NCBI GenBank assembly: GCA_946886875.1
Contig: CAMPJN010000019.1
Coordinates: 1 to 19,880 of the forward strand
Source: an uncultured Pseudomonas sp.
GTDB taxonomy: Bacteria; Pseudomonadota; Gammaproteobacteria; Pseudomonadales; Pseudomonadaceae
Reading direction: 5' to 3'
DNA: 19,880 nt
Shown here: one piece after another, positions 2,106 through 13,788 of the stretch
Layout: every line of letters starts with the position of its first letter
Position numbering within the stretch: position 1 is the first letter of the stretch
Notes under the pieces: model-generated
Told to the model about the DNA's origin: nothing
Database searches by the model: none
What the model saw: only the letters and a program-made list of their open reading frames with translations
Position numbers and translations under genes: made by a program

Positions 2106-2198
2106 TCACTCCCACTCTATTGTAAACAAGACATTTTTATCTTTTATATTCAATGGCTTATTTTCCTGCTAATTGGTAATACCATGAAAAATACCATG
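2106..2198. repeat. Left attachment site and island end with arm-type repeats
   Basis: The core TCACTCCCACTC (2106-2117) is followed by TATTGTAAACAAG. Two direct copies of ATACCATG lie at 2179-2186 and 2191-2198, 12 bases apart. The same octamer recurs around the integrase gene at the other island end, so these are good candidates for integrase or excisionase arm sites (inference). The interval between core and arms is AT-rich and contains no gene. Confidence 0.75.
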
Positions 2199-2412
2199 CT
2201 CAGAAAAGGCTTAACAATATTTTGAAAAATTGCCTACTGAGCGCTGCCGCACAGCTCCATAGGCCGCTTTCCTGGCTTTGCTTCCAGATGTATGCTCTTC
2301 TGCTCCTGCAGCTAATGGATCACCGCAAACAGGTTACTCGCCTGGGGATTCCCTTTCGACCCGAGCATCCGTATGAGACTCATGCTCGATTATTATTATT
2401 ATAGAAGCCCCC
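2199..2412 (+). promoter_or_regulatory. Upstream region of sul2 with inverted repeat and ATT repeat tract
   Basis: No gene is evident in this stretch. A 7-bp inverted repeat, CGAGCAT (2362-2368) and ATGCTCG (2382-2388), is followed directly by a tract of ATT repeats up to 2402, ten bases before the sul2 ATG. The layout resembles the sequence preceding sul2 on small resistance plasmids, as far as I recall. The tract could supply a -10 element or an unstructured ribosome landing site, but I cannot assign the promoter from sequence alone. Confidence 0.45.
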
Positions 2413-3228
2413 ATGAATAAATCGCTCATCATTTTCGGCATCGTCAACATAACCTCGGACAGTTTCTCCGATGGAGGCCGGTATCTGGCGCCAGACGCAG
2501 CCATTGCGCAGGCGCGTAAGCTGATGGCCGAGGGGGCAGATGTGATCGACCTCGGTCCGGCATCCAGCAATCCCGACGCCGCGCCTGTTTCGTCCGACAC
2601 AGAAATCGCGCGTATCGCGCCGGTGCTGGACGCGCTCAAGGCAGATGGCATTCCCGTCTCGCTCGACAGTTATCAACCCGCGACGCAAGCCTATGCCTTG
2701 TCGCGTGGTGTGGCCTATCTCAATGATATTCGCGGTTTTCCAGACGCTGCGTTCTATCCGCAATTGGCGAAATCATCTGCCAAACTCGTCGTTATGCATT
2801 CGGTGCAAGACGGGCAGGCAGATCGGCGCGAGGCACCCGCTGGCGACATCATGGATCACATTGCGGCGTTCTTTGACGCGCGCATCGCGGCGCTGACGGG
2901 TGCCGGTATCAAACGCAACCGCCTTGTCCTTGATCCCGGCATGGGGTTTTTTCTGGGGGCTGCTCCCGAAACCTCGCTCTCGGTGCTGGCGCGGTTCGAT
3001 GAATTGCGGCTGCGCTTCGATTTGCCGGTGCTTCTGTCTGTTTCGCGCAAATCCTTTCTGCGCGCGCTCACAGGCCGTGGTCCGGGGGATGTCGGGGCCG
3101 CGACACTCGCTGCAGAGCTTGCCGCCGCCGCAGGTGGAGCTGACTTCATCCGCACACACGAGCCGCGCCCCTTGCGCGACGGGCTGGCGGTATTGGCGGC
3201 GCTGAAAGAAACCGCAAGAATTCGTTAA
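2413..3228 (+). CDS. sul2: Sulfonamide-resistant dihydropteroate synthase Sul2
   Basis: Dihydropteroate synthase joins p-aminobenzoate to hydroxymethyl-dihydropterin pyrophosphate in folate synthesis. Sul enzymes do this while discriminating against sulfonamides. The product is 271 residues, the standard Sul2 length, and I recognise the sequence. Visible DHPS motifs are the pterin/phosphate loop NITSDSFSDGG (residues 12-22), LDSYQP (84-89), LNDIRG (103-108), DPGMGFF (174-180), SVSRKSF and a late RTHEP. Sul proteins differ from normal DHPS near the p-aminobenzoate pocket in the GMGFF region (family knowledge). It starts at ATG 2413 and is followed 86 bases later by the start of glmM, reproducing a chromosomal folP-glmM order. 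It is mobile cargo of CR2 and the island, not the host folP. Its immediate upstream DNA is AT-rich and unlike the host. Confidence 0.97.
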   Translation: MNKSLIIFGIVNITSDSFSDGGRYLAPDAAIAQARKLMAEGADVIDLGPASSNPDAAPVSSDTEIARIAPVLDALKADGIPVSLDSYQPATQAYALSRGVAYLNDIRGFPDAAFYPQLAKSSAKLVVMHSVQDGQADRREAPAGDIMDHIAAFFDARIAALTGAGIKRNRLVLDPGMGFFLGAAPETSLSVLARFDELRLRFDLPVLLSVSRKSFLRALTGRGPGDVGAATLAAELAAAAGGADFIRTHEPRPLRDGLAVLAALKETARIR

Positions 3229-3314
3229 CTGCACATTCGGGATATTTCTCTATATTCGCGGTTCAGCAGGCATGTCCCCTTTGAGGGCGACCCGACGACA
3301 GGATAATCGACCTT

Positions 3315-3560
3315 ATGGTGCGCAAATATTTCGGCACAGACGGTATTCGTGGCAAAGCCAACGAAGGCGCGATGACGGCGGAAACCGCCTTGCGCGTCGG
3401 CATGGCGGCTGGCCGTGTCTTTCGTCGCGGTGACCACCGCCATCGTGTCGTGATCGGCAAGGATACGCGCCTGTCGGGCTATATGCTTGAACCCGCGCTC
3501 ACAGCCGGTTTCACCTCGATGGGCATGGACGTATTCCTTTTTGGCCCGCTGCCGACAACG
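3315..3560 (+). pseudogene. glmM: Truncated phosphoglucosamine mutase gene (glmM remnant)
   Basis: About 80 N-terminal residues of GlmM remain, beginning [16 protein letters not shown] and including the conserved [10 protein letters not shown] and [10 protein letters not shown] segments. The normal enzyme is about 450 residues and interconverts glucosamine-6- and -1-phosphate. The active-site serine loop lies beyond the break, so the fragment cannot be active. Similarity stops at about 3560, where the oriIS-like end of CR2 begins. The frame then runs through CR2 DNA to a stop at 3615-3617, adding about 20 unrelated residues. The remnant is the accepted marker of how sul2 was captured: a folP-glmM operon cut by CR2. 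The fragment looks proteobacterial and could show the donor lineage. Confidence 0.93.
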
Positions 3561-3578
3561 TATAGGAAGAATAAACGC
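3559..3578 (-). other. oriIS-like terminus of CR2
   Basis: On the minus strand this reads GCGTTTATTCTTCCTATACG. It closely resembles the IS91-family oriIS pattern GCGTTT...ACTTCCTATACGG as I remember it. It lies exactly where glmM similarity stops and 3' of the transposase gene, as expected for the replication origin end. Confidence 0.75.
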
Positions 3579-3792
3579 CCTTTTCACCCAAGTCCAACAG
3601 CTTTGGACCGCAGTTGACTCTTTCGACACCCCTGCGATGCAACCCAATCCGGCTGACGGGGAGCCAGCAACGCTGAAAATTTACCCTCCTCTTTCCCACT
3701 AGCGGCTCCTTTTCCGACAACCAGCACGGCGGATCCCTGCCGCGGCGCTGTGAACGCAGCATTTTGATTGGTATCGTTGGCCTTCAGGCTCG

Positions 3793-5286
3793 TCAGTCAA
3801 ACAGACCCAGGAGCAGCTCAGCCGGTGGCGCCCGGCTTTCGGGTAACGCCCTGGTCCCGCTGGTTTCGGCTTTGTGCTTCAGGTGATCAAGGATCTGCTT
3901 GATCACTATAGGGTCTTCAATGCAGGCGATGACTTTCATGGCGCCGCCGCAGCCGCTGCAGGTCTCGATGTCGATATTGAAAACACGCTTGAGCCGTTGC
4001 GCCCATGTCATCGACGCTCGCCGTTGTGCTGGTGTTGCCGGTTCATCAGCCACCCTGACCTTGTTGCCCCTGCCCCGTTTTGCCGGCGTGACCAACGCCC
4101 GGTGCCGACTGTTGGGTGCGAACACCCCGTGGAAGCGGGTTAGGTTGACTCTGGGCTTCGGTACCAGGGCGGCCAGCCTTGCAATGAAATCCAATGGTTC
4201 GAAAATGACGTGCGTGGTGCCGTCCCGGTACGGCGTCTTGAGCTGGTAGCGCACGTTGCCGCCTCGTGTTAACGACAGCCGCTTCTCGGATACCGCCGGG
4301 CGGCTGATGTACCGGCACAGCCGTTCGAGCTTCTTGCGTTCATCGGCCCTGGCCGCCACGCCGGCGTGCAGGCTGGACCCGGCTACCTTGCCAATCCCGT
4401 CACCGAACGGATCACCACTGGTCGGCAGAGTTTGCAAAGTGAACACCTTTCGCCCCGCCTGTGAACCGACAGCGATACGGTAAGTGATCGAGTGCCCCAG
4501 CAGGGGTGTCATCGGGTCGTCATCCACCGCATCCGAGGCCAGATAGCTGTTTTCGACATCCCGTTCCAGCAGGCCTTGCCGTTCCAGATAGCGACCCACC
4601 CGGTGGGCGATGGTGTGCGTCAGCTGGGTGAGCTCTGGGCTGGTCGGCGCCTTGACCCAGCGGAAACGCGCTGAGCCGTGGGATTGCTCGACATACACAC
4701 CGTCGAGAAACAGCATGTGGAAGTGAACATTCAGATTGAGCGCCGATCCAAAACGCTGGATCAGGGTGACCGCGCCCGTCTTGGCCACTTGGTGGGTATG
4801 GCCCGCTTTCTTGACCAGGTGCGTGGCAATGACGCGGTAAACGATGCCCAGCACCCACCCCATGATCTCGGGCCGGCTGGCAAACAGGAAACGCAGCTGA
4901 AACGGGAAGCTCAACACCCACTGACGCATGGGTTGTTCAGGCAGTACTTCATCAACCAGCAAGGCGGCACTTTCGGCCATCCGCCGCGCCCCACAGCTCG
5001 GGCAGAAACCGCGACGCTTACAGCTGAAAGCGACCAGGTGCTCGGCGTGGCAAGACTCGCAGCGAACCCGTAGAAAGCCATGCTCCAGCCGCCCGCATTG
5101 GAGAAATTCTTCAAATTCCCGTTGCACATAGCCCGGCAATTCCTTTCCCTGCTCTGCCATAAGCGCAGCGAATGCCGGGTAATACTCGTCAACGATCTGA
5201 TAGAGAAGGGTTTGCTCGGGTCGGTGGCTCTGGTAACGACCAGTATCCCGACCCCGGCTGGCCGTCCTGGCCGCCACATGAGGCAT
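3793..5286 (-). CDS. rcr2: ISCR2 transposase (HUH rolling-circle, IS91 family)
   Basis: The 497-residue product nicks and transfers one strand during rolling-circle transposition. An N-terminal zinc ribbon is visible (Cys76-x2-Cys79, Cys89, Cys95-x2-Cys98). The HUH metal site is HFH at residues 188-190 within LNLNVHFHMLFLDGVY. A single catalytic tyrosine is likely Tyr326 in LCRYISRPAVSEKRL, as in ISCR enzymes, whereas IS91 has two. A second cysteine cluster, CSGCGGAMKV, sits near the C-terminus. The start at 5286 is preceded by AAGGA and then by a LexA-box-like palindrome. The gene is intact, so the element may be active. It reads toward glmM and sul2, with about 235 bases between its stop and the element end. 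Confidence 0.93.
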   Translation of the reverse strand: MPHVAARTASRGRDTGRYQSHRPEQTLLYQIVDEYYPAFAALMAEQGKELPGYVQREFEEFLQCGRLEHGFLRVRCESCHAEHLVAFSCKRRGFCPSCGARRMAESAALLVDEVLPEQPMRQWVLSFPFQLRFLFASRPEIMGWVLGIVYRVIATHLVKKAGHTHQVAKTGAVTLIQRFGSALNLNVHFHMLFLDGVYVEQSHGSARFRWVKAPTSPELTQLTHTIAHRVGRYLERQGLLERDVENSYLASDAVDDDPMTPLLGHSITYRIAVGSQAGRKVFTLQTLPTSGDPFGDGIGKVAGSSLHAGVAARADERKKLERLCRYISRPAVSEKRLSLTRGGNVRYQLKTPYRDGTTHVIFEPLDFIARLAALVPKPRVNLTRFHGVFAPNSRHRALVTPAKRGRGNKVRVADEPATPAQRRASMTWAQRLKRVFNIDIETCSGCGGAMKVIACIEDPIVIKQILDHLKHKAETSGTRALPESRAPPAELLLGLFD

Positions 5287-5303
5287 GTTCCGCGTCCTTG
5301 CAA

Positions 5304-5323
5304 TACTGTGTTTACATACAGTC
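5304..5323. promoter_or_regulatory. LexA-box-like palindrome upstream of rcr2
   Basis: TACTGTGTTTACATACAGTC matches the gammaproteobacterial SOS box TACTGT(AT)4ACAGTA at 16 of 20 positions and keeps the essential CTG-N10-CAG. It lies 18-37 bases upstream of the rcr2 ATG, where binding would block expression. Alphaproteobacterial LexA recognises a different, GTTC-N7-GTTC type site, so regulation would depend on the host. Confidence 0.55.
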
Positions 5324-5397
5324 TATCGCTTAGCGGAAAGTTCTTTTACCCTCAGCCGAAATGCCTGCCGTTGCTAGACATTGCCAGCCAGTGCCCG

Positions 5398-5490
5398 TCA
5401 CTCCCACTCGATTGTAAACAAGCACACAAAACCCTTTAGTGACAACAATTTGCAAGAACTATCAGGCTCAGTGCCATGAAAAATACCATG
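5398..5490. repeat. Internal second island end (att core plus arm repeats)
   Basis: The core TCACTCCCACTC (5398-5409) is followed by GATTGTAAACAAG, differing at one base from the left end over 25 positions. Arm-like octamers follow: GTGCCATG at 5471-5478 and ATACCATG at 5483-5490. Core-to-arm spacing is 73 bases, identical to the left end, and the 12-base arm spacing is also identical. The bases between core and arms are very different from the left end. It looks like the original left end of a related island, left internal when the sul2/CR2 segment was added. Confidence 0.75.
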
Positions 5491-5496
5491 ACCAGA

Positions 5497-5721
5497 TCAT
5501 GAGGTTGAACACGGCTTGCGCCGGCAGCGTTCACGCTCCTGGTCGGCGATCTCGCCCGGCTGCAATGCTAGCTCAGCATCGGTCATGCGCTCCAGCACGT
5601 CGCGTAGGCGGATGGTGCAAGGAATGGGCGGCAGCTCGAACTCATAGCCGCCGGCGATCATTTCGGCCGCAATCTCCTCGGTGATGAAAAACGGCTCGTC
5701 GTCTTGGTTCGGCTTCTTCAT
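5497..5721 (-). CDS. Small acidic protein of unknown function, coupled to resolvase
   Basis: The 74-residue ORF begins MKKPNQDDEPFFITEEIAAEM and overlaps the resolvase stop by four bases (ATGA at 5718-5721), so it is probably translated by coupling. It is acidic until a basic cysteine-containing tail (ERCRRKPCSTS). That tail runs to within a few bases of the arm repeats, so the C-terminus may have been created by the island boundary. No domain is recognised. The central PIPCTIRLRDVLERMTDAELAL has helix-forming character. It could assist the resolvase or be a plasmid backbone remnant; neither is shown. Confidence 0.6.
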   Translation of the reverse strand: MKKPNQDDEPFFITEEIAAEMIAGGYEFELPPIPCTIRLRDVLERMTDAELALQPGEIADQERERCRRKPCSTS

Positions 5722-6455
5722 GCCCTTTCCTCCTGGCGCTCATCCTGGCCGACAGCGGCCAGGGCATCGGCTTCCGTCAATGCGTCCTCCACGAACGCGC
5801 CGTGCTGCTTCGCTTCGGCCTGGCTGACCTCGGCCCATATCCGTTTCACCTGGGCCGCACTGTACCCGGCCAGCTCGGCGGTCTTGTTGATGCTGTAGCC
5901 GGACTTGCGCAGCGCGACAACTTGGGCGCGGCGCTTCGGATCAGCACGGCGGCCCTTGTACCGCCCGGCCTGGCGGGCCAACTCAATGCCTTGGCGCTGG
6001 CGTTCGCGCCTGTCCTCGTAGTCGTCGCGGGCCATCTGCAAGGCCAGGCGAAAAAGCATGATCTGCACGGCTTCCAGCACGATCTTGGCGACGCCCTGGG
6101 CCTCGGCCGCCAGGTCGGATAGATCGACCACGCCAGGGACGGCCAGGCGTGCGCCTTTGGCCTGTATCGAGGCCACCAGGCGCTCGGCCTCGGGCAAAGG
6201 TAGGCGGCTGATGCGGTCGATCTTCTCGGCAATGACCACCTCGCCGGGCTGTAGGTCGCCGATCATGCGCAGCAGCTCAGGCCGGTCGGCGCGTGCGCCG
6301 GATGCCTTCTCACGGTAGATGCCGGCGACGTAGTAGCCGGCGGCCTTCGCGGCCGTAGTGATCGCCTCTTGGCGTTCCAAGTCCTGCGCGTCGGTGCTGA
6401 CGCGCAGATAGACCCGCGCCACCATCGGCGCGGCTACTGGCTTCGTCCTGCGCAT
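5718..6455 (-). CDS. Serine resolvase/invertase family recombinase
   Basis: The 245-residue protein has the N-terminal resolvase catalytic domain with ARVYLRVSTDAQDLERQ, the nucleophile likely Ser20. It continues through GVVIAEKIDRISRLP-type active-site segments and the long E-helix, and ends in a helix-turn-helix around KRRAQVVALRKSGYSINKTAELAGYSAAQVKRI. Such enzymes resolve plasmid or transposon cointegrates and multimers at res sites. A GGAG ribosome-binding site precedes ATG 6455; a second Met at codon 11 is possible. It faces away from the ars operon across a 147-base interval that could hold its res site. The 30-residue tail beyond the HTH is longer than in Tn3 resolvases and acidic. 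In an island able to replicate, it may resolve tandem or dimeric forms (inference). Confidence 0.88.
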   Translation of the reverse strand: MRRTKPVAAPMVARVYLRVSTDAQDLERQEAITTAAKAAGYYVAGIYREKASGARADRPELLRMIGDLQPGEVVIAEKIDRISRLPLPEAERLVASIQAKGARLAVPGVVDLSDLAAEAQGVAKIVLEAVQIMLFRLALQMARDDYEDRRERQRQGIELARQAGRYKGRRADPKRRAQVVALRKSGYSINKTAELAGYSAAQVKRIWAEVSQAEAKQHGAFVEDALTEADALAAVGQDERQEERA

Positions 6456-6538
6456 ACTTGCGGGCTCCTTTGGGCATACTCAAATGCACCCATCTTAAAC
6501 TGGCAGGCCAATTTATCACATATCGATCTAAATGCGCC

Positions 6539-6602
6539 TAGCTCATTTTTACAGCTTAAATGAGCTATTGAGCACACTCCATATTTCGACTATTATTGAA
6601 AC
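6539..6602 (+). promoter_or_regulatory. ars operon promoter with inverted-repeat operator
   Basis: A perfect 10-bp inverted repeat, TAGCTCATTT (6539-6548) and AAATGAGCTA (6558-6567), directly precedes a -35 TTGAGC (6568-6573), a 17-base spacer and a -10 TATTAT (6591-6596). The repeat is a plausible ArsR operator. The predicted transcription start falls at or within a base or two of the arsR ATG at 6603. Confidence 0.6.
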
Positions 6603-6935
6603 ATGGAAACGATAAATGCTGTAGCCGCCCTGGCGGCCATCGCTCAAGAATCGCGCCTCGCGGTGTTCCGGCTTCTCGTCCAGGCCGGCCCCGCCGGCAT
6701 GGCCGCCGGAAAAATCAGCGAAGCGGCCGGCATCCCGCCGTCTTCGCTATCCTTCCACCTGAAAGAGCTGGCACACGCCGGCATGGTCACGTCGCGGCAA
6801 GAAGGCCGATTTGTGATCTACGAGGCGAACTTTTCGACGGCCACTAACCTGGTGGCCTTTCTCACGGAAAACTGCTGCGGCGGCCAGGTGTGCAACCTGT
6901 CTTGCACCACGGAAGCCGGGAAGGTGTTGGCATGA
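6603..6935 (+). CDS. arsR: Arsenite-responsive ArsR/SmtB repressor
   Basis: The 110-residue winged-helix repressor has its recognition region at about residues 37-60 ([20 protein letters not shown]) followed by a wing ([13 protein letters not shown]). The As(III) site is at the C-terminus: Cys91, Cys92, Cys97 and Cys101 in [13 protein letters not shown]. This is the arrangement of the Acidithiobacillus-type ArsR rather than the classical ELCVCDL site in the DNA-binding helix. It heads the ars operon and overlaps arsH by ATGA. No Shine-Dalgarno sequence precedes the ATG and the predicted transcript begins there, so translation may be leaderless. Expected role: repress its own operon until arsenite or antimonite binds. 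Confidence 0.95.
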
Positions 6936-7699
6936 GACTTCGCCATCTTTCCGACCCCGATTCTTTGCCCGCTTTGGACAAATCCTTTGCCATCGAGCGC
7001 CCGGCGCTCGGGCTGGCACCCGACGCCCCGCCGGTGCGTATCCTGCTGCTGTATGGCTCGCTGCGCGCCCGCTCGTTCTCACGGCTGGCCGTCGAGGAAG
7101 CGGCCCGGCTGCTGCAATTCTTTGGCGCAGAAACACGCATCTTCGACCCGTCCGATTTGCCGTTGCCCGATCAAGTGCAAAGCGACGATCACCCGGCCGT
7201 CAAGGAGCTGCGCGCCCTGTCCGAGTGGTCAGAGGGACAAGTCTGGTGCAGCCCGGAACGCCACGGTCAGATTACCAGTGTCATGAAGGCGCAGATTGAC
7301 CATCTGCCGCTTGAAATGGCCGGCATCCGGCCGACCCAAGGCCGCACCCTGGCCGTGATGCAGGTATCCGGCGGCTCGCAGAGCTTCAACGCCGTGAACA
7401 CCTTGCGTCTGCTCGGCCGCTGGATGCGAATGTTCACCATTCCGAACCAGTCGAGTATCGCCAAAGCGTTCCAAGAGTTCGACGCGGCGGGCCGCATGAA
7501 GCCCTCGCCGTACTACGACCGAATAGCCGATGTGATGGAAGAACTGGTGCGCTTCACGGCGCTGGTACGGCCGCACCGTGAAGCACTGACAGACCGCTAT
7601 TCCGAACGGAAAGCGGCCGGCCACGTCATCGACGAGGCCACCGATCTTTCATCCATCGCCATTGCTCCCCAGCCACTACCAGAAAGCGAAACATCATGA
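6932..7699 (+). CDS. arsH: NADPH-dependent FMN reductase ArsH (organoarsenical resistance)
   Basis: The 255-residue flavodoxin-like protein has the FMN-phosphate loop [14 protein letters not shown] at residues 38-51, the conserved [16 protein letters not shown] region (98-112), and [15 protein letters not shown] (145-159). ArsH enzymes oxidise trivalent methylated or aromatic arsenicals to less toxic pentavalent forms, using FMN and NADPH. I place the start at ATG 6932, overlapping the arsR stop by four bases. An upstream ATG at 6890 lies inside arsR and adds residues not typical of the family. The stop overlaps the arsC start, again by ATGA. Full length, no defects seen. Confidence 0.94.
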
Positions 7700-8202
7700 C
7701 CGAAAGAATCTATAACGTCCTCATCCTCTGCACCGGCAATTCGGCGCGCAGCATCATGGCCGAAGCTCTCATCAACACGATGGGGCAAGGGCGCTTCCGC
7801 GCCTACAGCGCCGGCAGTCACCCAACCGGCAAGGTCAATCCCTTCGCCGTCGAAAAGGTGGAGTCGGTGAATTACCCGACCGAGAATCTGCGCAGCAAGA
7901 GCTGGGACGAGTACGCCACGCCCGACGCACCGAAGATGGACTTCATCATCACCGTCTGCGACAACGCCGCCGGCGAAATGTGTCCGGTGTGGCCTGGTCA
8001 GCCGATCTCGGCGCATTGGGGATTTGAAGACCCGGCCGCCGTCGAAGGCACTGACGCCGAGAAGCGCCGGGCCTTCGAACAAACCTTCCGGCACATGATG
8101 AACCGCGTCCGCCTGTTCGTGAATCTGCCTCTCAAAATGCTTGACCAGACGGCCATCAAGCGCGAGCTGGCGAACATCGGCAAGACCGAGCAGGAAGCAT
8201 GA
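7696..8202 (+). CDS. arsC: Arsenate reductase, low-molecular-weight phosphatase type
   Basis: The 168-residue protein reduces arsenate to arsenite for export. It has the LMW-phosphatase loop CTGNSARS starting at Cys12 (CX5R with Arg18) and two further cysteines, Cys88 and Cys96, in [16 protein letters not shown]. This is similar to the Cys82/Cys89 relay of the thioredoxin-coupled ArsC, so thioredoxin coupling is likely but not certain. The segment HWGFEDPAA is also typical. It overlaps arsH upstream and acr3 downstream by four bases each, giving a tightly coupled operon that passes arsenite to the exporter. Confidence 0.95.
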
Positions 8203-9266
8203 GCGCCGGCGCACAGGCCATCGCCGCGAAGCCGCGCCAGGCCCCGATGAGCGGCTTCGAGCGTTACCTGACGCTGTGGGTGGCCCTGTGCATCGTCGCC
8301 GGTGTTGCGCTCGGCCAGGGCCTTCCTGACGTGTTCCAGGCCATAGGCCGCATGGAAGTGGCCCAGGTCAATTTGCCGGTGGGCCTGCTGATTTGGGTAA
8401 TGATCGTCCCGATGCTGGTCAAGATCGACTTCGGGGCGCTGCACCAGGTCAAAGAGCATTGGCGCGGCATCGGCGTCACGCTGTTCGTGAATTGGGCCGT
8501 CAAGCCATTCTCGATGGCCCTGCTGGGGTGGCTGTTCATCCGACAAGTGTTCGCTCCGTTCCTGCCGGCCGATCAACTGGACAGCTACATCGCGGGCTTG
8601 ATCTTGCTGGCCGCCGCGCCCTGCACGGCAATGGTGTTCGTGTGGAGCCGCCTTACCAACGGCGACCCGCTTTTCACGCTCTCGCAAGTGGCTCTGAACG
8701 ACGCCATCATGATCGTGGCCTTCGCGCCCATCGTCGGCCTGCTGCTGGGCATGTCCTCGATCTCGGTGCCTTGGGACACGCTGCTGATTTCGGTCGTGCT
8801 CTACATCATCGTGCCGGTGATCCTGGCGCAGCTCTTGCGGCGGCATCTGCTCAAGCAAGGACAGGCCGCCTTTGAACGGGCCATGCAGAAGATCGGGCCG
8901 TGGTCGATGGCCGCGCTGCTGCTGACGTTGGTTCTACTGTTCGCCTTCCAGGGCGAGGCCATCATCCGGCAGCCGTTAGTGATCGCCATGCTAGCCGTGC
9001 CGATCTTGATTCAAGTGTTCTTCAATTCCGGGTTAGCCTACTGGCTGAACAAGCGGGCGGGGGAAAAGCACTCTGTCGCCTGTCCTTCGGCCCTGATCGG
9101 TGCCAGCAACTTCTTCGAGCTGGCCGTGGCGGCCGCCATCAGCTTGTTCGGTCTGCACTCCGGCGCTGCATTGGCAACCGTGGTCGGCGTCCTGGTCGAA
9201 GTGCCGGTGATGCTGCTGGTCGTGCGCGTGGTGAATCGCTCGAAGAGCTGGTACGAACGAGGTTGA
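8199..9266 (+). CDS. acr3: ACR3-family arsenite efflux permease
   Basis: The 355-residue membrane protein has about ten hydrophobic segments. Conserved ACR3 features include the essential cysteine in AAAPCTAMVFVWS (Cys142) and the essential glutamate in GASNFFELAVA (Glu307). These correspond to the Cys and Glu shown to be required in characterised Acr3 proteins. It exports arsenite through the inner membrane using the proton gradient. Also called arsB in some annotations, but the sequence is ACR3, not the 12-TM ArsB family. The start overlaps arsC by ATGA; an internal Met at residue 17 is an alternative. It is the last recognised ars gene, though tiny ORFs follow at once. Confidence 0.95.
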   Translation: MSAGAQAIAAKPRQAPMSGFERYLTLWVALCIVAGVALGQGLPDVFQAIGRMEVAQVNLPVGLLIWVMIVPMLVKIDFGALHQVKEHWRGIGVTLFVNWAVKPFSMALLGWLFIRQVFAPFLPADQLDSYIAGLILLAAAPCTAMVFVWSRLTNGDPLFTLSQVALNDAIMIVAFAPIVGLLLGMSSISVPWDTLLISVVLYIIVPVILAQLLRRHLLKQGQAAFERAMQKIGPWSMAALLLTLVLLFAFQGEAIIRQPLVIAMLAVPILIQVFFNSGLAYWLNKRAGEKHSVACPSALIGASNFFELAVAAAISLFGLHSGAALATVVGVLVEVPVMLLVVRVVNRSKSWYERG

Positions 9267-9268
9267 AC

Positions 9269-9384
9269 ATGAGTAGGAAAAAACTGAGGAAATGATTGCA
9301 GATTGCCGCGCCGGCCGCTTCCTGGCGCATTCGATCACTGACCTGGAACACCTAGTATCCATGCTTGCTGAGGTCGCCCGATGA
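9269..9384 (+). other. Two tiny chained ORFs after acr3
   Basis: Two bases after the acr3 stop, an 8-codon ORF (MSRKKLRK, 9269-9295) overlaps by ATGA a 30-codon ORF (9292-9384, beginning MIADCRAGRFLAHS). The latter overlaps the next gene by another ATGA. The repeated four-base overlaps suggest they are translated as coupling relays, or that they are remnants. No function is recognised and no family match is claimed. Confidence 0.35.
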
Positions 9385-9584
9385 CAGACCCAAAGAACCT
9401 AGAGAACAGGCTGCATGAGAAGGCCGACCCGGCCCGCGCCGTTTCCACTGGTCGGGTGCGCTACACACTGGCCGAACTACTGGCCGACGCGGAAGCATCC
9501 GGGGCTTACCCGCTGCCGCCGGAGGAACGCGAATGGATGGATGCGCCGTCTGTGGGTCGGGAATGGCCAAACAGTGAAGATTGA
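9381..9584 (+). CDS. Small protein resembling the C-terminal half of MazE-type antitoxins
   Basis: The 67-residue ORF has the segment RVRYTLAELLADAEASGAY followed by PPEEREWMDAPSVGRE. This pattern (basic-Tyr-Thr/Ser-Leu-x-Glu-Leu-Leu ... acidic-Trp-x-x-x-x-Pro-Val-Gly-Arg-Glu) is the toxin-neutralising tail of MazE/ChpBI/PemI antitoxins. The usual AbrB-like DNA-binding N-terminus is missing and replaced by an acidic 25-residue stretch. No MazF-like toxin gene follows; a terminator comes within a few bases. It overlaps the preceding tiny ORF by ATGA. It may be an anti-toxin decoy against other replicons' MazF, or a remnant. Recognition is by motif only. Confidence 0.5.
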   Translation: MTDPKNLENRLHEKADPARAVSTGRVRYTLAELLADAEASGAYPLPPEEREWMDAPSVGREWPNSED

Positions 9585-9585
9585 A

Positions 9586-9616
9586 AAAGGCGGCCAGTTC
9601 GAGTGGCCGCCCTTTC
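9586..9616. terminator. Bidirectional terminator between convergent genes
   Basis: The stem GGCGGCCA (9589-9596) and TGGCCGCC (9604-9611) flanks a 7-base loop. A-rich sequence precedes it and CTTT follows, giving TTTTT on the minus strand. It lies between the ars transcript and the convergent gene ending at 9621. Confidence 0.8.
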
Positions 9617-9620
9617 GTCA

Positions 9621-9845
9621 TTAGCTGCACGCTTGGCGCAAGGCGTTCATTGCTTCTTGAAAATCAGCCTGTGTCGCCCGGCCCGTTTCAGCTTGGTAGT
9701 ACACCACCATAAAAGCATTAGCGACGGCTTCGGCCAATGGCCCAAGGCTCCGCGCTTCCGCTTGGTTGATGTACTCCAAAGAAGAAAGAATAGCCGCTGC
9801 TTGATGCACTGCTTGCCCTGGTTCGATAATATGTTGTGTTGTCAT
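9621..9845 (-). CDS. Hypothetical protein of plasmid backbone, 74 aa
   Basis: The product starts MTTQHIIEPGQAVHQAAAIL and is largely helical by composition, with many Ala, Glu and Gln and no membrane segment. A strong ribosome-binding site (GAGAGGTG) precedes the ATG, so it is probably a real gene. It is the last gene of the minus-strand trb cluster, 63 bases after the 82-residue gene, and is followed by the terminator at 9586-9616. No family is recognised; in IncP plasmids the genes after trbL are trbM onward, and it does not resemble TrbM to my eye. Confidence 0.6.
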   Translation of the reverse strand: MTTQHIIEPGQAVHQAAAILSSLEYINQAEARSLGPLAEAVANAFMVVYYQAETGRATQADFQEAMNALRQACS

Positions 9846-9879
9846 AATTCACCTCTCCAGTAGGTGTTGATTGAAAGTG

Positions 9880-9903
9880 CCGGGCTGGTTGTGGCCAGCC
9901 CGG
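9880..9903. terminator. Hairpin after the 82-aa gene
   Basis: Perfect 9-bp stem CCGGGCTGG (9880-9888) / CCAGCCCGG (9895-9903) with a 6-base loop lies just past the stop at 9909 on the minus strand. The following T-tract is short, so it may be an attenuating terminator or an mRNA-stabilising hairpin. Confidence 0.5.
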
Positions 9904-9908
9904 TGCGC

Positions 9909-10157
9909 CTACAGGTACAGCCCCGCCGCCTCCGCGAATGCTGACCGCTCATTCCTGCCGCCATTAACCTCAATACTTATCGGCTTAGTTTCGCTCTCTC
10001 TCATAGGGTCTGGCCGTGATACAAAAGCGGCTGTTTCTGTCTCTGCATCGACCTCGGTCGATTGATCACCCAGCGGCGAAATAAATACCTGGCTGACTTC
10101 TTCCCTTGGCGCTTCATCCAGGGCCGCCAATGCGGCCATGTATGTTGATGTCGTCAT
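9909..10157 (-). CDS. Hypothetical protein downstream of trbL, 82 aa
   Basis: The ORF begins MTTSTYMAALAALDEAPREE and is acidic and probably soluble. A clear AGGAG ribosome-binding site lies inside the end of trbL, and the ATG is only four bases beyond the trbL stop, so translation is likely coupled. No domain is recognised. Position after trbL suggests a role in the transfer-related cluster, but the sequence itself gives no function. Confidence 0.6.
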   Translation of the reverse strand: MTTSTYMAALAALDEAPREEVSQVFISPLGDQSTEVDAETETAAFVSRPDPMRESETKPISIEVNGGRNERSAFAEAAGLYL

Positions 10158-10161
10158 CGTG

Positions 10162-11589
10162 CTAACTCCTGACTTCGTTACTATCTGGGCCAGAATCGGC
10201 GCCCAAGCTATTGCCCTCGAACTGGCCAGATTGGCTTGCTTCTTTCGGCTCCATGCTTTCGCGTATCGAAGCAGCCAGTTTTCCGCCTGTGGTTTCGCTC
10301 ACTCGCTCCTGGAATCCCTGCTTCACTTGAGAGCCGACACCCTTGGCTAACTCGGAGGCCGTGCCTGTGGCCAGCTTCGCGGCCTTGGCAAAGCCGCCAC
10401 CGCTTGAGCTACTGCCGCTGTCACCAAAGCCAGCCGCTTGGGCGAATGGGCTACTGCCAGCAGTACCCGCTTCACCACCACCGTTTCCGCCACTGCTGAC
10501 AACTGACCCCATGCTGGACATGTCACCGCCGGTTTCCATACTCGCTGATGCTTTCTGAAAAGCCGCTTGGAGTGCACTTGCACCTCCGGCTGCACCGGCT
10601 GCGGCACCCATAACCGCTTTACCTGCCAGGGCAGCGCCGCCAGTTGCCATACTGGCCGCCGTCACCGCCGCCCCAACTGCCGCACCCGCACCGAAGTTTC
10701 CAATTCCACCGGCTGCGCCAATACCACCACCAGACACAAGACCAGAAATCATCGGCGGAACTTTGTTGACCAAGAAAAGCAAGATGACCGATATAACCAA
10801 CATCACGGCCAGTTCCTGGGATGCCATGTTCTCGCTGATTTGCGTGTAGTAGTGATTGATGAACTCTTTGCCAATCGCAACCAGAAGCACCATTGCCATA
10901 AGCTGTGCGGCCAGGCCCAGCACGGTCTTGTAGTAATTGATCGCCATGTCGGAAGTCCAACGACTTCCACCAAAGCCAAGGAAGAACACACCGGCATACA
11001 ACAGAATCCAGGCTGATGCGAGCAACAGCAACAGGTTGACCGCAATCAACGCCAGGACAAACAAAACAGCCAGGGCCATTAGCTCCATGACCAGAGCAGT
11101 TGCCATCTGCCGCCATCCCAGCTCCGAGGTGGCCTGTACTGTGCGGTTGTATAACTCGAAACCAAGATCAAGGATGCTGGAGGGCCCAAGATTGCTATTG
11201 GAAAGTCCCCCCGCCTGCGCGCCCAGAGTTTGCAATGACTGAACAATCGTACCGGCGATATTCATGCCCTGGTTCGCATTCGTCAGCAACCACCAGAAAA
11301 AGCCGGTGAAGATCGTGAAGCGAACGAACTCCGCGAAGAACTCGCCAATGTCGGCCTTGCGCAAAGCCATCATGCCGAATGTCCAGACCATCGAAATCAC
11401 AACCAGCGTCCAGAACAAACGCGATGCAGCGGACTCAATAGCTGGCCCCCATGTTGCGGCAGCATCATGAAAACGCTTGAGCACATCATTCATAACACCG
11501 CTGCTACTTAGCTCCTGCGCCATTGCAGGTTCAGCCAGCACCATTGTGGCGACCATCATCAAGCCACCTAGAGCAATTTTCTTTCTCAT
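10162..11589 (-). CDS. trbL: P-type conjugative transfer protein TrbL (VirB6-like)
   Basis: The 475-residue inner-membrane protein has a signal-like start (MRKKIALGGLMMVATMVLAEPAMAQE), then several hydrophobic helices over about residues 55-290. A long Gly/Ala/Ser-rich, low-complexity tail follows (about 290-475). This is the TrbL/VirB6 architecture: a polytopic channel component of type IV secretion. I choose ATG 11589, preceded by GAGGTGG, rather than 11715, because the upstream extension lies within trbK in another frame and the signal sequence begins here. It follows trbK by 10 bases. No trbB-trbI genes occur in the window, so this subunit has no island-encoded machine to join; a helper plasmid's apparatus is the likely partner. 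Confidence 0.9.
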   Translation of the reverse strand: MRKKIALGGLMMVATMVLAEPAMAQELSSSGVMNDVLKRFHDAAATWGPAIESAASRLFWTLVVISMVWTFGMMALRKADIGEFFAEFVRFTIFTGFFWWLLTNANQGMNIAGTIVQSLQTLGAQAGGLSNSNLGPSSILDLGFELYNRTVQATSELGWRQMATALVMELMALAVLFVLALIAVNLLLLLASAWILLYAGVFFLGFGGSRWTSDMAINYYKTVLGLAAQLMAMVLLVAIGKEFINHYYTQISENMASQELAVMLVISVILLFLVNKVPPMISGLVSGGGIGAAGGIGNFGAGAAVGAAVTAASMATGGAALAGKAVMGAAAGAAGGASALQAAFQKASASMETGGDMSSMGSVVSSGGNGGGEAGTAGSSPFAQAAGFGDSGSSSSGGGFAKAAKLATGTASELAKGVGSQVKQGFQERVSETTGGKLAASIRESMEPKEASQSGQFEGNSLGADSGPDSNEVRS

Positions 11590-11599
11590 GGCGACCACC

Positions 11600-11836
11600 T
11601 CAATAATCATCTTTAGGGCTGGGCTTGAACTCCCACTGACGCATCTGCTTGGCCTTCTGGAATGCTCTGCATTCCTCGGTAAAGGCCTCTCGGTTCGCTT
11701 CGCTGCGCATTTCATTCAGTGCTGCCTGGAACGCATCGGGGGCACACGTCGCCGCATTTGGTTCGGGCATCCTTTCCTGTTCACATCCAGCCAACAACAG
11801 CAACGTAGCCGCGGTAGTAAAAAAGATTTTTTTCAT
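11600..11836 (-). CDS. trbK: TrbK-like entry-exclusion lipoprotein
   Basis: The 78-residue product has a lipoprotein signal MKKIFFTTAATLLLLAGC with lipobox Cys18. In RP4, the small lipoprotein TrbK between trbJ and trbL gives entry exclusion, and gene order here is the same (J-K-L). The ATG follows a GAGGCGGTGAG ribosome-binding site, 12 bases after the trbJ stop. The C-terminus (MRQWEFKPSPKDDY) is strikingly similar to the C-terminus of the neighbouring TrbJ (MRTWTFRPSPADNY). Identity as TrbK rests on position, size and lipobox, since TrbK proteins are poorly conserved. Confidence 0.75.
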   Translation of the reverse strand: MKKIFFTTAATLLLLAGCEQERMPEPNAATCAPDAFQAALNEMRSEANREAFTEECRAFQKAKQMRQWEFKPSPKDDY

Positions 11837-11848
11837 CTCACCGCCTCC

Positions 11849-12628
11849 CTAGTAGTTGTCTGCCGGACTCGGGCGAAACGTCCAGGTACGCATTTGCTCG
11901 GCCCTGGCATCACCTCGCGCCTCGGCATCGAGTTCTGCTGCAATCCGGGCTGCCTCCGCGTTGTGTTGGGCGGTCAACATGGTGCGAATCTGCAAGAGCT
12001 GATTGGCCTGCTGGCTGGCGAGCTGGTTGGCGTAGCCGATGGCCTGTAGCTGGCCAGTTGCACCCTGGGCCGCGCCTTGCAGCCGCTCCAGGGTACGGGC
12101 GTCATCCTTCAAAGCCTTTTGCTGGTCGGCAACGGTCTGGAACAGGGCATCGTTGGCCTTCTTTTGCGACTCTGACGCCAGGCGGCGGTTCTCTTCCATC
12201 GCTGCCTTTTCGGCCGGCGTGCATCCGCCGCTGCCGTTGAAGCATGGCGAGCTGCGGTAATAGGCCACGTCCTGAAACTTGGCCAGGTAACGATCCAGGC
12301 TGCCTAGCTGGTTCTCGTAATAGGCCAGCGTGTTTTGCGCGGCAATCAGCCGGTTGATCGTAGTCTGCGCCTGATCCCAGATATACGCGGCTGGGGCCAT
12401 CGTGTTCTGGAGCTGATTTTCGTACTGCTGCAACTGGGTCTGGTACTGCTCAATCTGCTTGAGCGTCTGCGCCACCGACTCGATGGCCGTCATGATGTTC
12501 TGGGCCAGGTTGCCGCCGTCGATGACGGGGATACCAGCTTGCACAGGGGCGGTGGTAGTGGTGATAAAGCCGGTTGCGAGTGCAACGGCTAGAGCGGTTT
12601 TTTTAGCCGCTAAAATTTTGGACTTCAT
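11849..12628 (-). CDS. trbJ: P-type conjugative transfer protein TrbJ (VirB5-like)
   Basis: The 259-residue secreted protein has a signal peptide (residues 1-31, ending APVQA) and then long Gln-rich helices (ESVAQTLKQIEQYQTQLQQYENQ). It ends with the tail RAEQMRTWTFRPSPADNY. TrbJ is the VirB5-like periplasmic subunit of P-type transfer systems, linked to pilus assembly and, in RP4, to the exclusion region. The start is set at ATG 12628 with GGAG before it; the frame is open upstream to 12700 but that part overlaps a leader hairpin and precedes the signal peptide. It is first in a trbJ-trbK-trbL-unknown-unknown cluster. One central pair of cysteines in CFNGSGGC is compatible with a disulfide. 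Confidence 0.9.
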   Translation of the reverse strand: MKSKILAAKKTALAVALATGFITTTTAPVQAGIPVIDGGNLAQNIMTAIESVAQTLKQIEQYQTQLQQYENQLQNTMAPAAYIWDQAQTTINRLIAAQNTLAYYENQLGSLDRYLAKFQDVAYYRSSPCFNGSGGCTPAEKAAMEENRRLASESQKKANDALFQTVADQQKALKDDARTLERLQGAAQGATGQLQAIGYANQLASQQANQLLQIRTMLTAQHNAEAARIAAELDAEARGDARAEQMRTWTFRPSPADNY

Positions 12629-12640
12629 GGTCGTACTCCG

Positions 12641-12703
12641 TCGATGAAAAGAAGGCATTGCCTTGACCAAGCGTTGTGCTTGTTCTCGGCAACGTTTCAT
12701 CGA
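12641..12703 (-). promoter_or_regulatory. Stem-loop in the trbJ leader
   Basis: A perfect 9-bp inverted repeat TCGATGAAA (12641-12649) / TTTCATCGA (12695-12703) encloses a smaller CAAGC-GTTGT-GCTTG hairpin. The lower stem ends beside the GGAG ribosome-binding site of trbJ, so folding could control trbJ translation (inference). Confidence 0.45.
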
Positions 12704-12768
12704 AGAGCTACGCCACTAGCTGATCGGTATTGCCCTTGGCGCTGAGGCCCGGACTTACAAACGTAAAA

Positions 12769-12957
12769 CTACTCTGTTTTTTTATCGCTTTCGGACAAGC
12801 CAACTTCCCGGCCAATCTCTTCAAGCTCTAGCGGCTGTACTGCCGCCGTCAGTATTTCGCGTATTTCCGCGTCGGTGCTCCTATCGTTGAGCGCTGCTCG
12901 AACTTTCAACGCACGGTGCACCTCGGCGGGTAAATTCCTGATAAGCACATTTGCCAT
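12769..12957 (-). CDS. Ribbon-helix-helix protein, FitA/StbC-like antitoxin without toxin
   Basis: The 62-residue protein starts MANVLIRNLPAEVHRALKVR and continues RAALNDRSTDAEIREILTAAV, the standard N-terminal RHH fold of FitA-like antitoxins and plasmid stability proteins StbC. The acidic C-terminus (EEIGREVGLSESDKKTE) would normally bind a PIN-domain toxin. No such toxin gene follows; the next gene in this direction is trbJ after about 140 bases. It may instead act as a DNA-binding regulator of the trb cluster. A 15-base sequence identical to one ahead of alpA lies 31-45 bases upstream of its ATG. The ribosome-binding site is weak (AAGGG). Confidence 0.78.
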   Translation of the reverse strand: MANVLIRNLPAEVHRALKVRAALNDRSTDAEIREILTAAVQPLELEEIGREVGLSESDKKTE

Positions 12958-12987
12958 ATCAATACCCTTTTGGTGTACCCGACAACC

Positions 12988-13002
12988 ATGCTATCAAAGA
13001 TA
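12988..13002. promoter_or_regulatory. Operator-like 15-mer shared with the rep operon
   Basis: ATGCTATCAAAGATA is identical to 16035-16049, ahead of alpA. Here the right half-site is degraded (GATATT instead of GATAGC). It lies upstream of the RHH/trb cluster on the minus strand and probably binds the same regulator. Confidence 0.5.
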
Positions 13003-13088
13003 TTAAAAATAGCAAGACCTATACTCTTGCAACCGGCGGTAGCCGATCAGCCCCGCAGGGCAGGATTCCCGTTGAGTGCCCCCGGCGC

Positions 13089-13155
13089 GAATAAGGGACA
13101 GTGAAGATAGATAACCGGCTTGCCGGTTAGCTAACTTCACCCATCCTGCCCGCAT
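13089..13155 (+). other. oriT: IncP-type origin of transfer (oriT)
   Basis: GAATAAGGGACA (13089-13100) leads into an 18-bp imperfect inverted repeat: GTGAAGATAGATAACCGG (13101-13118), CTTG loop, CCGGTTAGCTAACTTCAC (13123-13140), pairing 16 of 18. CCATCCTGCCCG follows. The RP4 oriT has the same order and nearly the same bases outside the stem centre, with nic in YATCCTG|Y, so the expected nick is between 13148 and 13149. Stem-centre bases differ from RP4, so specificity may be for another IncP-related relaxosome. No relaxase gene is in the window. Transfer from this nick would lead with the rep and integrase side. Confidence 0.85.
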
Positions 13156-13240
13156 TTCACCCACTATTGAAAATCTAGCGCATATCGAACGTAAAGCGTT
13201 TTATCGTCAAACAAACACCGATTCTTGGCAACATAACCGT

Positions 13241-13332
13241 AATCGTCACCAAATCGGCCTGCAATCGACATAGTCGCTTCAAAATCGCTGCTCAATCGGC
13301 TTTAAATCGGAACCTAAAATGCCAACAATCGA
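13241..13332. repeat. Helically phased AATCG repeats
   Basis: ATCG occurs at 13242, 13253, 13264, 13284, 13295, 13306 and 13328, mostly preceded by A or AA. Most steps are 11 bases, with one 20 and one 22. The spacing puts the motif on the same DNA face. It sits between oriT and the nested inverted repeats and may bind a relaxosome or replication protein. Confidence 0.45.
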
Positions 13333-13343
13333 CACAAACCATT

Positions 13344-13525
13344 CGCCCCGATGGGGCGAGTTGGACGCCAAAAAAGAAGGGCATAACCCGCCCCTCAAGT
13401 GTCAATGAACACAAGAAATTTGCCTCCCCTCCCGTCATACCACTAAGGCGACGTATTGATACTTGAGGGGCAACCTTTCCTGATGTTGACACCTTCACGC
13501 AGGTTACTGGTTATGGGCGTCCAAC
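13344..13525. repeat. Nested inverted repeats in the presumed origin region
   Basis: Three nested pairs are visible: GTTGGACGCC (13360-13369) with GGCGTCCAAC (13516-13525); CATAACC (13382-13388) with GGTTATG (13509-13515); and GCCCCTCAAGTGTCAAT (13390-13406) with ATTGATACTTGAGGGGC (13455-13471), 16 of 17 paired. A small CGCCCC/GGGGCG hairpin precedes them (13344-13358). Symmetry of this type fits the paired single-strand initiation sites of IncQ origins, but no match to a known ssi is claimed. Open frames crossing it look spurious. Confidence 0.6.
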
Positions 13526-13549
13526 ACACACGGCTCATTCCTGCTTGGT

Positions 13550-13579
13550 AATAATAAGAATAATAATCTTCTTATTATT
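13550..13579. repeat. AT-rich palindrome
   Basis: AATAATAAGAA (13550-13560) and TTCTTATTATT (13569-13579) form a perfect 11-bp stem with an 8-base loop, wholly AT-rich apart from single C/G bases. It could be a DNA unwinding element of the origin. Confidence 0.45.
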
Positions 13580-13788
13580 CTTACCGAACGAATGGGCACT
13601 GCTTAGCCATTTCACGTTTCGAGCCAAGGTTTCAGTACAGATAACTACAAGTGCACACAGCGGCCCTCCAGCACCGTTAGACGCAGATTCTGCTTCAGCT
13701 CATGGAATAAGGGACTCCGGGTTGTTTTCCCCTCTCACAAGGCGTTTCAGCGGCCACTGAAGCCGCCTTCTCTTCTTGGCGTTAAACC

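What the first reader, a model, noticed from the sequence alone, without database searches (positions are those of the whole stretch)
13089..13155. IncP-type oriT makes the island mobilisable in trans
The layout GAATAAGGGACAGTGAAG, an 18-bp stem, then CTTCACC-ATCCTG-CCCG reproduces the RP4 oriT with its nic hexamer. No relaxase is encoded, so after excision the circle could be moved by IncP plasmids. The stem centre is different from RP4, which predicts a particular IncP-related TraJ.
Basis: partly seen in the sequence, partly recalled or inferred. Interest (0 to 1): 0.75.

Follow-up and report, generated by a model that had tools for sequence, protein, structure and literature searches.

The report
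Two-key transfer origin in GIsul2
A drug-resistance island found in many kinds of bacteria carries the DNA start signal that IncP plasmids use for cell-to-cell transfer, with no gene of its own found here that acts on it, so it likely hitch-hikes on visiting IncP plasmids, most likely those of the epsilon subgroup rather than the textbook plasmid RP4.

Summary
Observation confirmed, with corrections. The window holds GIsul2 (2110-17576, 100% to known copies) at guaA. At 13089-13151 it carries an IncP-1-type oriT: 19-bp inverted repeat, 8 bp, nic predicted at 13148/13149. The nearest oriT is not RP4's: the 59 bases up to nic are 59/59 identical to IncP-1epsilon pHH128, 57/59 to R751 and 47/59 to an RP4-type oriT. 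The site is also larger than reported. Right of nic, seven AATCG boxes (13241-13331) repeat the 20-11-11 spacing of IncP-1epsilon; the boxes are conserved, the bases between them are not. This is the predicted TraK array.

Two codes thus point to one helper type. Stem arms ..CTAA go with VPV-type TraJ (9 of 9 distinct TraJ), ..GGCCTA with VYC-type (16 of 16); 9 of 9 held-out TraJ with a classifiable arm agree. Where a traK gene was found, the AATCG array goes only with pHH128- and A. pittii-type TraK. GIsul2 looks like an island that lost traJ, traI and traK but kept the site. GIsul2, a proposed IncP helper and the presence of an oriT are already in print; I found no account of the two-part specificity. 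Mobilisation is untested.

The parts
2110..17577 (.). GIsul2 island, with TCCCACTC at 2110-2117 and 17570-17577
   Evidence: 2110-17576 is 100% identical to plasmid copies; att sites
13033..13088 (.). traJ-leader part of the oriT, kept although traJ is absent
   Evidence: 95.2% to pHH128 over 13033-13156; overlaps Rfam traJ-II
13049..13151 (-). Rfam traJ-II motif (RF01760), full length, with no traJ behind it
   Evidence: 109.7 bits, cut-off 40, model 1-104/104
13089..13151 (+). oriT core, GAATAAGGG...CTTCACCCATCCTGCCC
   Evidence: identical to pKJK5 in this stretch
13101..13119 (+). left arm of the 19-bp inverted repeat
   Evidence: 17 of 19 complementary
13122..13140 (+). right arm (..GGTTAGCTAA..), predicted TraJ site, CTAA class
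   Evidence: arm class goes with TraJ N-terminus
13143..13148 (+). nic hexamer ATCCTG; predicted nick 13148/13149
   Evidence: 8 bp from the arm, as in RP4 (PMC7314908 passage); nick not tested
13241..13331 (+). seven AATCG boxes (13241, 13252, 13263, 13283, 13294, 13305, 13327), predicted TraK array
   Evidence: same spacing in pHH128; box conservation
12769..12957 (-). FitA-like ribbon-helix-helix gene, first annotated gene behind the traJ leader
   Evidence: PF22513, E 1.5e-16; R485 annotation
11849..12628 (-). trbJ
   Evidence: annotation of R485, offset 1510; 75% to pKJK5 TrbJ
11600..11836 (-). trbK, entry-exclusion lipoprotein
   Evidence: annotation of R485, offset 1510
10162..11589 (-). 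trbL
   Evidence: R485 annotation; PF04610
13960..14028 (.). three 22-bp direct repeats, iteron-like, beside repC
13990..14871 (-). repC, IncQ-type
   Evidence: PF06504, E 7.8e-145; R485 annotation
14858..15685 (-). repA-like helicase
   Evidence: R485 annotation
15690..15911 (-). alpA
   Evidence: PF05930
16059..17261 (-). tyrosine integrase
   Evidence: PF00589; R485 annotation
17566..19125 (-). guaA, the target gene

Best explanation
At 13033-13331 the resistance island GIsul2 carries the sequence of an IncP-1epsilon-type transfer origin (the 59 bases up to nic are identical to those of pHH128) but no detected gene that acts on it, so an IncP-1 plasmid, most likely of the epsilon subgroup, is predicted to nick and export the excised island in trans. 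Steps: (a) Shown in print by others: the integrase excises the island as a circle and reinserts it (PMC9376610). (b) Inferred: the helper's VPV-type TraJ binds the right arm, its TraK binds the AATCG array, TraI nicks at 13148/13149, and the helper's TraG and T4SS export the strand. (c) Inferred from the RP4 polarity: the side with the array, iterons, repC, repA, alpA and int would enter first and the trb genes last, so replication and integration genes arrive early. (d) Inferred: the site was kept when the three relaxosome genes were lost, because relatives still have traJ (Bordetella trematum L015) or traJ, traI and traK (Alcaligenaceae L022).
For: Identity to IncP-1epsilon. The AATCG boxes keep the epsilon spacing; against pHH128 23/25 box bases match versus 12/51 between boxes (Fisher 9e-9), and 0 of 3000 shuffled pairs reach the observed coincidence. 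The array ends just before the traK start in pHH128 and the A. pittii plasmid, and TraK of RP4 is reported to bind a curved region of about 200 bp downstream of the traK promoter (PMC7314908 passage). Arm class and TraJ N-terminus agree in 25 of 25 distinct classed TraJ and in 9 of 9 held-out TraJ with a classifiable arm. Among oriTs with a TraK gene found, the array occurs with pHH128- and A. pittii-type TraK only. The same stem is in 33 of the 103 stretches that the oriT pattern found in GTDB genomes, and in 32 of 32 with enough stored the array is at the same positions. 12 of 13 checkable copies lie at guaA.
Against: No transfer or nick experiment. TraI of IncP type is absent (E 1e-10) from 28 of 30 genomes bearing the site, and the other two hits are 33% and 26% identical, so no close IncP helper lives with the island in these 30. 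TrbJ is closest to epsilon (75%), but TrbL is closest to R751 (54%, against 46% for pKJK5). The TraK array is predicted from spacing and conservation only. Some pentamer seen seven times is not rare in itself (648 of 20000 shuffles). L034 has a VPV-type TraJ with an arm of neither class, and TraK at 51-54% to pHH128 goes without the array.
Confidence: 0.75

Rival explanations
1. The site is an IncP oriT that any IncP-1 plasmid, RP4 included, mobilises about equally; the stem and array differences do not matter in cells.
For: The outer repeat bases and most nic bases are shared by all 11 oriTs compared.
Against: Arm class tracks TraJ N-terminus in every classed case. PMC12696120 (passage) says TraJ and TraK give specificity to their native oriT.
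Confidence: 0.25
2. The oriT is a relic: the island no longer moves by conjugation and spreads aboard plasmids that it entered by its integrase or by CR2.
For: GIsul2 sits in plasmids, 14 of 15 listed with this stretch typed conjugative, among them an IncX plasmid and, in print, an IncA/C plasmid (PMC5704250 passage); no close helper is resident in 28 of 30 genomes; circles may be rare (PMC9376610 passage).
Against: Diverged relatives keep stem and array: L052 and L078 have the same stem and 7 of 7 boxes, and L015 keeps 30/30 box bases against 58/86 elsewhere. Copies lie at guaA in many genera.
Confidence: 0.15
3. The conserved stretch is mainly the traJ-II leader RNA, now regulating fitA-trbJKL, and transfer is secondary.
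For: Full-length Rfam traJ-II on the minus strand lies upstream of fitA.
Against: The match covers the oriT repeat and nic; the AATCG array lies outside it; no sigma-70-like promoter was found in 12600-14100.
Confidence: 0.08

Closest known systems
IncP-1epsilon oriT (pKJK5, pHH128)
   Same: 59/59 identity up to nic; AATCG array with 20-11-11 spacing
   Different: No traJ, traI or traK beside it; array shifted 11 bp with two extra boxes; bases between boxes at chance identity (12/51)
R751 oriT (IncP-1beta)
   Same: CTAA-class arm, 57/59
   Different: No AATCG on the TraK side; TAGCG is its commonest pentamer there
RP4/RK2 oriT (IncP-1alpha)
   Same: Layout, repeat length, 8 bp to nic, nic hexamer
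   Different: 47/59 (RP4-type PB5); GGGCCTA arm; no array
GIsul2 / Tn6591 as published
   Same: The same island; oriT listed in its backbone; IncP helper proposed from TrbJ, TrbK and TrbL
   Different: The passages seen give no oriT subtype, stem class or TraK array
Relaxase-less IMEs (iOriT), e.g. MGIVflInd1, GIE492 (table of PMC5704250)
   Same: Integrative element without relaxase, helper in trans
   Different: Other helpers; no IncP-type stem or box array known to me (recalled)
oriT mimics of staphylococcal pWBG749 plasmids (PMC8136818, abstract and passages)
   Same: Borrowed oriTs in subtypes, read by the accessory protein SmpO at the right repeat arm; an N-terminal change (F7K) switches the choice
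   Different: Gram-positive plasmids, unrelated system; here an integrative island with a second, TraK-side array

Membership tests
IncP-1 oriT (cis site) | 19-bp inverted repeat 8 bp from nic | tested here: met
   Arms 13101-13119 and 13122-13140, 8 bp to 13148/13149; standard from PMC7314908 (passage)
IncP-1 oriT (cis site) | nic sequence ATCCTG|CCC and conserved GAATAAGGG flank | tested here: met
IncP-1 oriT (cis site) | TraK-binding region right of nic | tested here: inconclusive
   Conserved AATCG array at the expected place; binding untested
IncP-1 oriT (cis site) | Nicked by IncP TraI | not testable with these tools
   Needs protein
IncP transfer region with its own relaxosome | traJ/traI on the left, traK on the right | tested here: not met
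   tblastn of pKJK5 TraI, TraJ, TraK finds none at E 1
IME without relaxase (iOriT) | Integrase and att sites | tested here: met
IME without relaxase (iOriT) | No relaxase | tested here: inconclusive
   No IncP TraI and none in the gene table of R485; a quite unrelated relaxase was not exhaustively sought
IME without relaxase (iOriT) | Moved by a helper | not testable with these tools
   No assay
Rfam traJ-II leader RNA | Sequence and structure match | tested here: met
   109.7 bits
Rfam traJ-II leader RNA | Lies upstream of traJ | tested here: not met
   fitA follows; no TraJ in the window

The most novel reading that the evidence does not exclude
IncP-family oriTs are two-key locks: a stem arm read by the N-terminal strand of TraJ and a helically phased pentamer array (AATCG, TAGCG or CAGCG by TraK clade) read by TraK. 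A large family of relaxosome-stripped islands, GIsul2 among them, survives by keeping and swapping these keys to fit the IncP plasmids of the day, some islands holding two oriTs of opposite class. The Rfam traJ-II RNA would then be largely this DNA lock rather than a leader RNA.
Probability: 0.4. Interest if true: 0.72.

Novelty: new variant of a known kind. Interest (0 to 1): 0.55.

Why it matters
GIsul2 has been proposed to help spread sul2, yet its movement between cells is not demonstrated in the papers seen. The sequence now names a testable helper (IncP-1epsilon, isolated from manure and arable soil) instead of RP4, and gives a rule linking oriT stems to TraJ types that can be checked in any genome.

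Tried and rejected
(1) First idea: the oriT is a half-and-half hybrid joined at nic by relaxase recombination. Rejected: against L015 and pHH128, sites at nic-103 to -90 match the island (5 of 5), nic-67 to -16 match the plasmid (11 of 11; ten of these are five arm pairs, so about six events), and right of nic 114 of 128 match the island (pHH128 aligns poorly there). So a stem patch differs, not a half. Its direction is open: L022 has the other arm class, but L015's TraJ is itself 97% identical to pHH128 from alignment column 51 on.

(2) Resident helper: no TraI in 28 of 30 genomes. The genomes of the 23 later stretches were not searched.

(3) TrbL does not support epsilon.

(4) Raw pentamer counts are weak evidence: 648 of 20000 shuffles hold some pentamer seven or more times (homopolymers were not excluded), while AATCG itself, chosen after seeing it, reached seven in 0 of 20000.

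(5) TraK at 51-54% to pHH128 (L034, L096, L106, L111) does not go with an AATCG array. L076, with no TraK found, has four boxes at another spacing.

(6) Held-out TraJ: 10 plasmid hits were fetched. L128 was dropped; L126 and L130 have a TraJ already in the set; L127 and L129 have neither motif; L122, L123, L124 and L131 agree; L125 (VYC) has a variant arm, GGGGCTA, and is not counted. Among the 23 later stretches five new TraJ agree (L096, L097, L104, L110, L111), but L104 and L110 share N-termini with earlier ones, and L096 and L111 with each other. L034 of the first set was left unclassed.

(7) AlphaFold of TraJ (pTM 0.52): residues 1-16 below pLDDT 50, first helix 22-35; it does not show the strand. 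Nearest solved relative is NikA 2ba3 (E 0.009).

(8) Viral-contig scan: 0. Promoter scan: 0.

(9) 11 stretches with the RP4 stem on contigs of 3.9-5.8 kb look like laboratory vector and were dropped from family counts.

Full report
What the window is. The stretch 2110-17576 is GIsul2, 100% identical to plasmid copies (gene table from the IncX plasmid R485), with TCCCACTC at 2110 and 17570 and guaA on its right. The flank guaA is 84% identical to the nearest genome held and 77% to that of Sphingopyxis granuli, so the host is probably an alphaproteobacterium. No assembly of the window itself is held.

The observation. The IncP-type core stands at 13089-13151 and nowhere else in the window. Arms of 19 bp (17 of 19 complementary) end 8 bp before the predicted nick, the hexamer ATCCTG being the last six of these, the geometry reported for RP4 (PMC7314908, passages). 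blastn of 13000-13250 finds 385 plasmid records, of which 60 were seen; in many of these the alignment runs from 13033 to 13156, so the traJ leader is included. Over the 59 bases up to nic, IncP-1epsilon pHH128 scores 59/59, R751 57/59 and PB5 47/59; pKJK5 is identical in the core too. PB5 stands for RP4: its stem and TraJ equal those of pUZ8002 (that pUZ8002 derives from RK2 is recalled). pHH128 and pKJK5 are named as IncP-1epsilon in PMC4301011 (passages); PMC3590792 (passages) names pKJK5 IncP-1epsilon in its table.

The second half of the site. As a query by itself, 13149-13345 finds 15 plasmid records, all at 99% or more. Yet seven AATCG boxes stand at nic+92, 103, 114, 134, 145, 156 and 178 (0-based). 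pHH128 has 125, 145, 156, 167 and 190, and an Acinetobacter pittii plasmid has 114, 134, 145, 156 and 179: the same 20-11-11-22/23 steps, about one helical turn or two. Laid at that offset, window and pHH128 agree at 23 of 25 box bases but only 12 of 51 bases between boxes, which is chance level (Fisher 9e-9). Against A. pittii the figures are 24/25 and 20/51, and against Bordetella trematum L015 30/30 and 58/86. No pair of shuffles (0 of 3000) reaches four same-pentamer coincidences at one offset. In pHH128 and A. pittii the array ends just before traK begins. Among seven reference TraK only pHH128 and A. pittii (58% to each other, 25-36% to the rest) go with AATCG; in R751 the commonest pentamer of the stretch is TAGCG and in several other islands CAGCG (both seen after the fact). 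TraK at 51-54% to pHH128 lack the array. I read the array as the TraK site; binding is untested.

The first key. Of 26 distinct TraJ proteins beside IncP-type oriTs, 25 have a classifiable arm..CTAA (9 TraJ) goes with an N-terminus VPV and ..GGCCTA (16 TraJ) with VYC. Six columns separate the classes, all at R751 residues 14-25. The 26th, L034, has VPV and an arm of neither class. Nearest neighbours by alignment columns 1-30 have the same arm class 25 of 25 times, by the rest of the protein 21 of 25, so arm follows N-terminus rather than descent alone; L015 is 97% identical to pHH128 from column 51 on but has a VYC N-terminus and a GGGCCTA arm. Nine of nine held-out TraJ with a classifiable arm agree, a tenth has a variant arm, and two have neither motif. 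TraJ is of the NikA-like family. In a staphylococcal accessory protein, SmpO, an N-terminal F7K change switches oriT choice (PMC8136818, abstract and passages).

The family. A scan of GTDB genome contigs gave 103 stretches, all analysed, with 104 oriTs. 33 carry the GIsul2 stem; in 32 of 32 with enough stored the array has the same positions, and L016 is cut. 12 of 13 copies with stored flank (of the first 30) lie at guaA. In E. coli, 22 of 5426 genomes hold 12950-13400. Besides the GIsul2 type and the 11 vector-like rows, 15 stretches (16 sites) show no traJ in the stored left flank: 10 sites of the CTAA arm and 6 of the GGCCTA or near-GGCCTA arm (L102 and L106 are cut on the left, L051 has 589 bases). 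Of 24 relatives' genomes, 13 have no TraI at E 1e-10 or better. L015 keeps traJ only; L022 keeps traJ, traI and traK, and after its traK the sequence again resembles GIsul2. I infer stepwise loss of the relaxosome genes with retention of the site.

How it most likely works. Excision and integration are shown by others (PMC9376610, passages). The rest is inferred: an incoming IncP-1epsilon-like plasmid supplies TraI, TraJ, TraK, TraG and the T4SS. With RP4 polarity the side with iterons, repC, repA, alpA and int enters first and the trb genes last. The review PMC5704250 (passages) proposes IncP-1alpha and perhaps other IncP helpers, and retrotransfer through TrbJ, TrbK and TrbL. My data favour epsilon by stem, array and TrbJ (75% pKJK5, 67% R751, 60% RP4), but not by TrbL (46, 54 and 48%).

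Literature. PMC8239412 (passages) lists oriT among the backbone parts of Tn6591 = GIsul2, without sequence or type in the text seen. PMC9376610 has 0 uses of the word oriT. PMC11389934 (passages) defines iOriT. Harmer et al. 2017 (Plasmid) was not seen; it may describe more. That the two-part specificity is not in print rests on the searches, of this library only, mostly read as listings.

Verdict. A real, probably functional, transfer origin in a known island.

Noticed in passing
window 13049-13151 and L008, L012, L029, L038, L051, L053, L061, L078, L083, L090: Rfam traJ-II (rated certainly an RNA and cis-regulatory in a table of PMC2864571, passage) is full length at 94.7-110.5 bits in these loci, where no traJ was found, and at 90.1-112.6 bits in ten loci with traJ. 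It may be oriT DNA rather than a leader RNA.
   Followed up: partly
L061 (1610-1672 and 6044-6107); L105 and L114 (one Brenneria salicis contig): Two contigs with island genes each hold two IncP oriTs of opposite arm class and no traJ in the stored flanks.
   Followed up: partly
L003 5599-6695: A traJ-oriT-traK fragment, identical in both proteins to locus L022, lies between two CR2 (ISVsa3) copies on an Acinetobacter pittii plasmid that also has tet(Y), mph and sul2 nearby.
   Followed up: no
window 13960-14028, 13990-15685: Three 22-bp iteron-like repeats with IncQ-type repC and a repA-like gene but no repB primase in the gene table: the circle might replicate.
   Followed up: no
window 9839-9910: PtaRNA1 antisense RNA, 86.6 bits, overlapping the start of a gene annotated as a ptaRNA1-family toxin; PtaRNA1 is also in 6 of 20 other loci scanned.
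   Followed up: no
window 5402-5409: Third TCCCACTC, upstream of the CR2 gene, which would fit the attLR of PMC9376610.
   Followed up: no
L008 3001-3117: Azotobacter chroococcum 308-kb plasmid, typed non-mobilizable, carries an IncP oriT with no TraJ, TraK or TraI found in 6 kb.
   Followed up: partly
L013, L020, L030, L037, L040, L042, L050, L056, L069, L089: Ten contigs of 3.9-4.7 kb in assemblies of mostly marine genera (recalled) carry the RP4 stem and no TraJ, TraK or TraI match: probably laboratory vector contamination.
   Followed up: no
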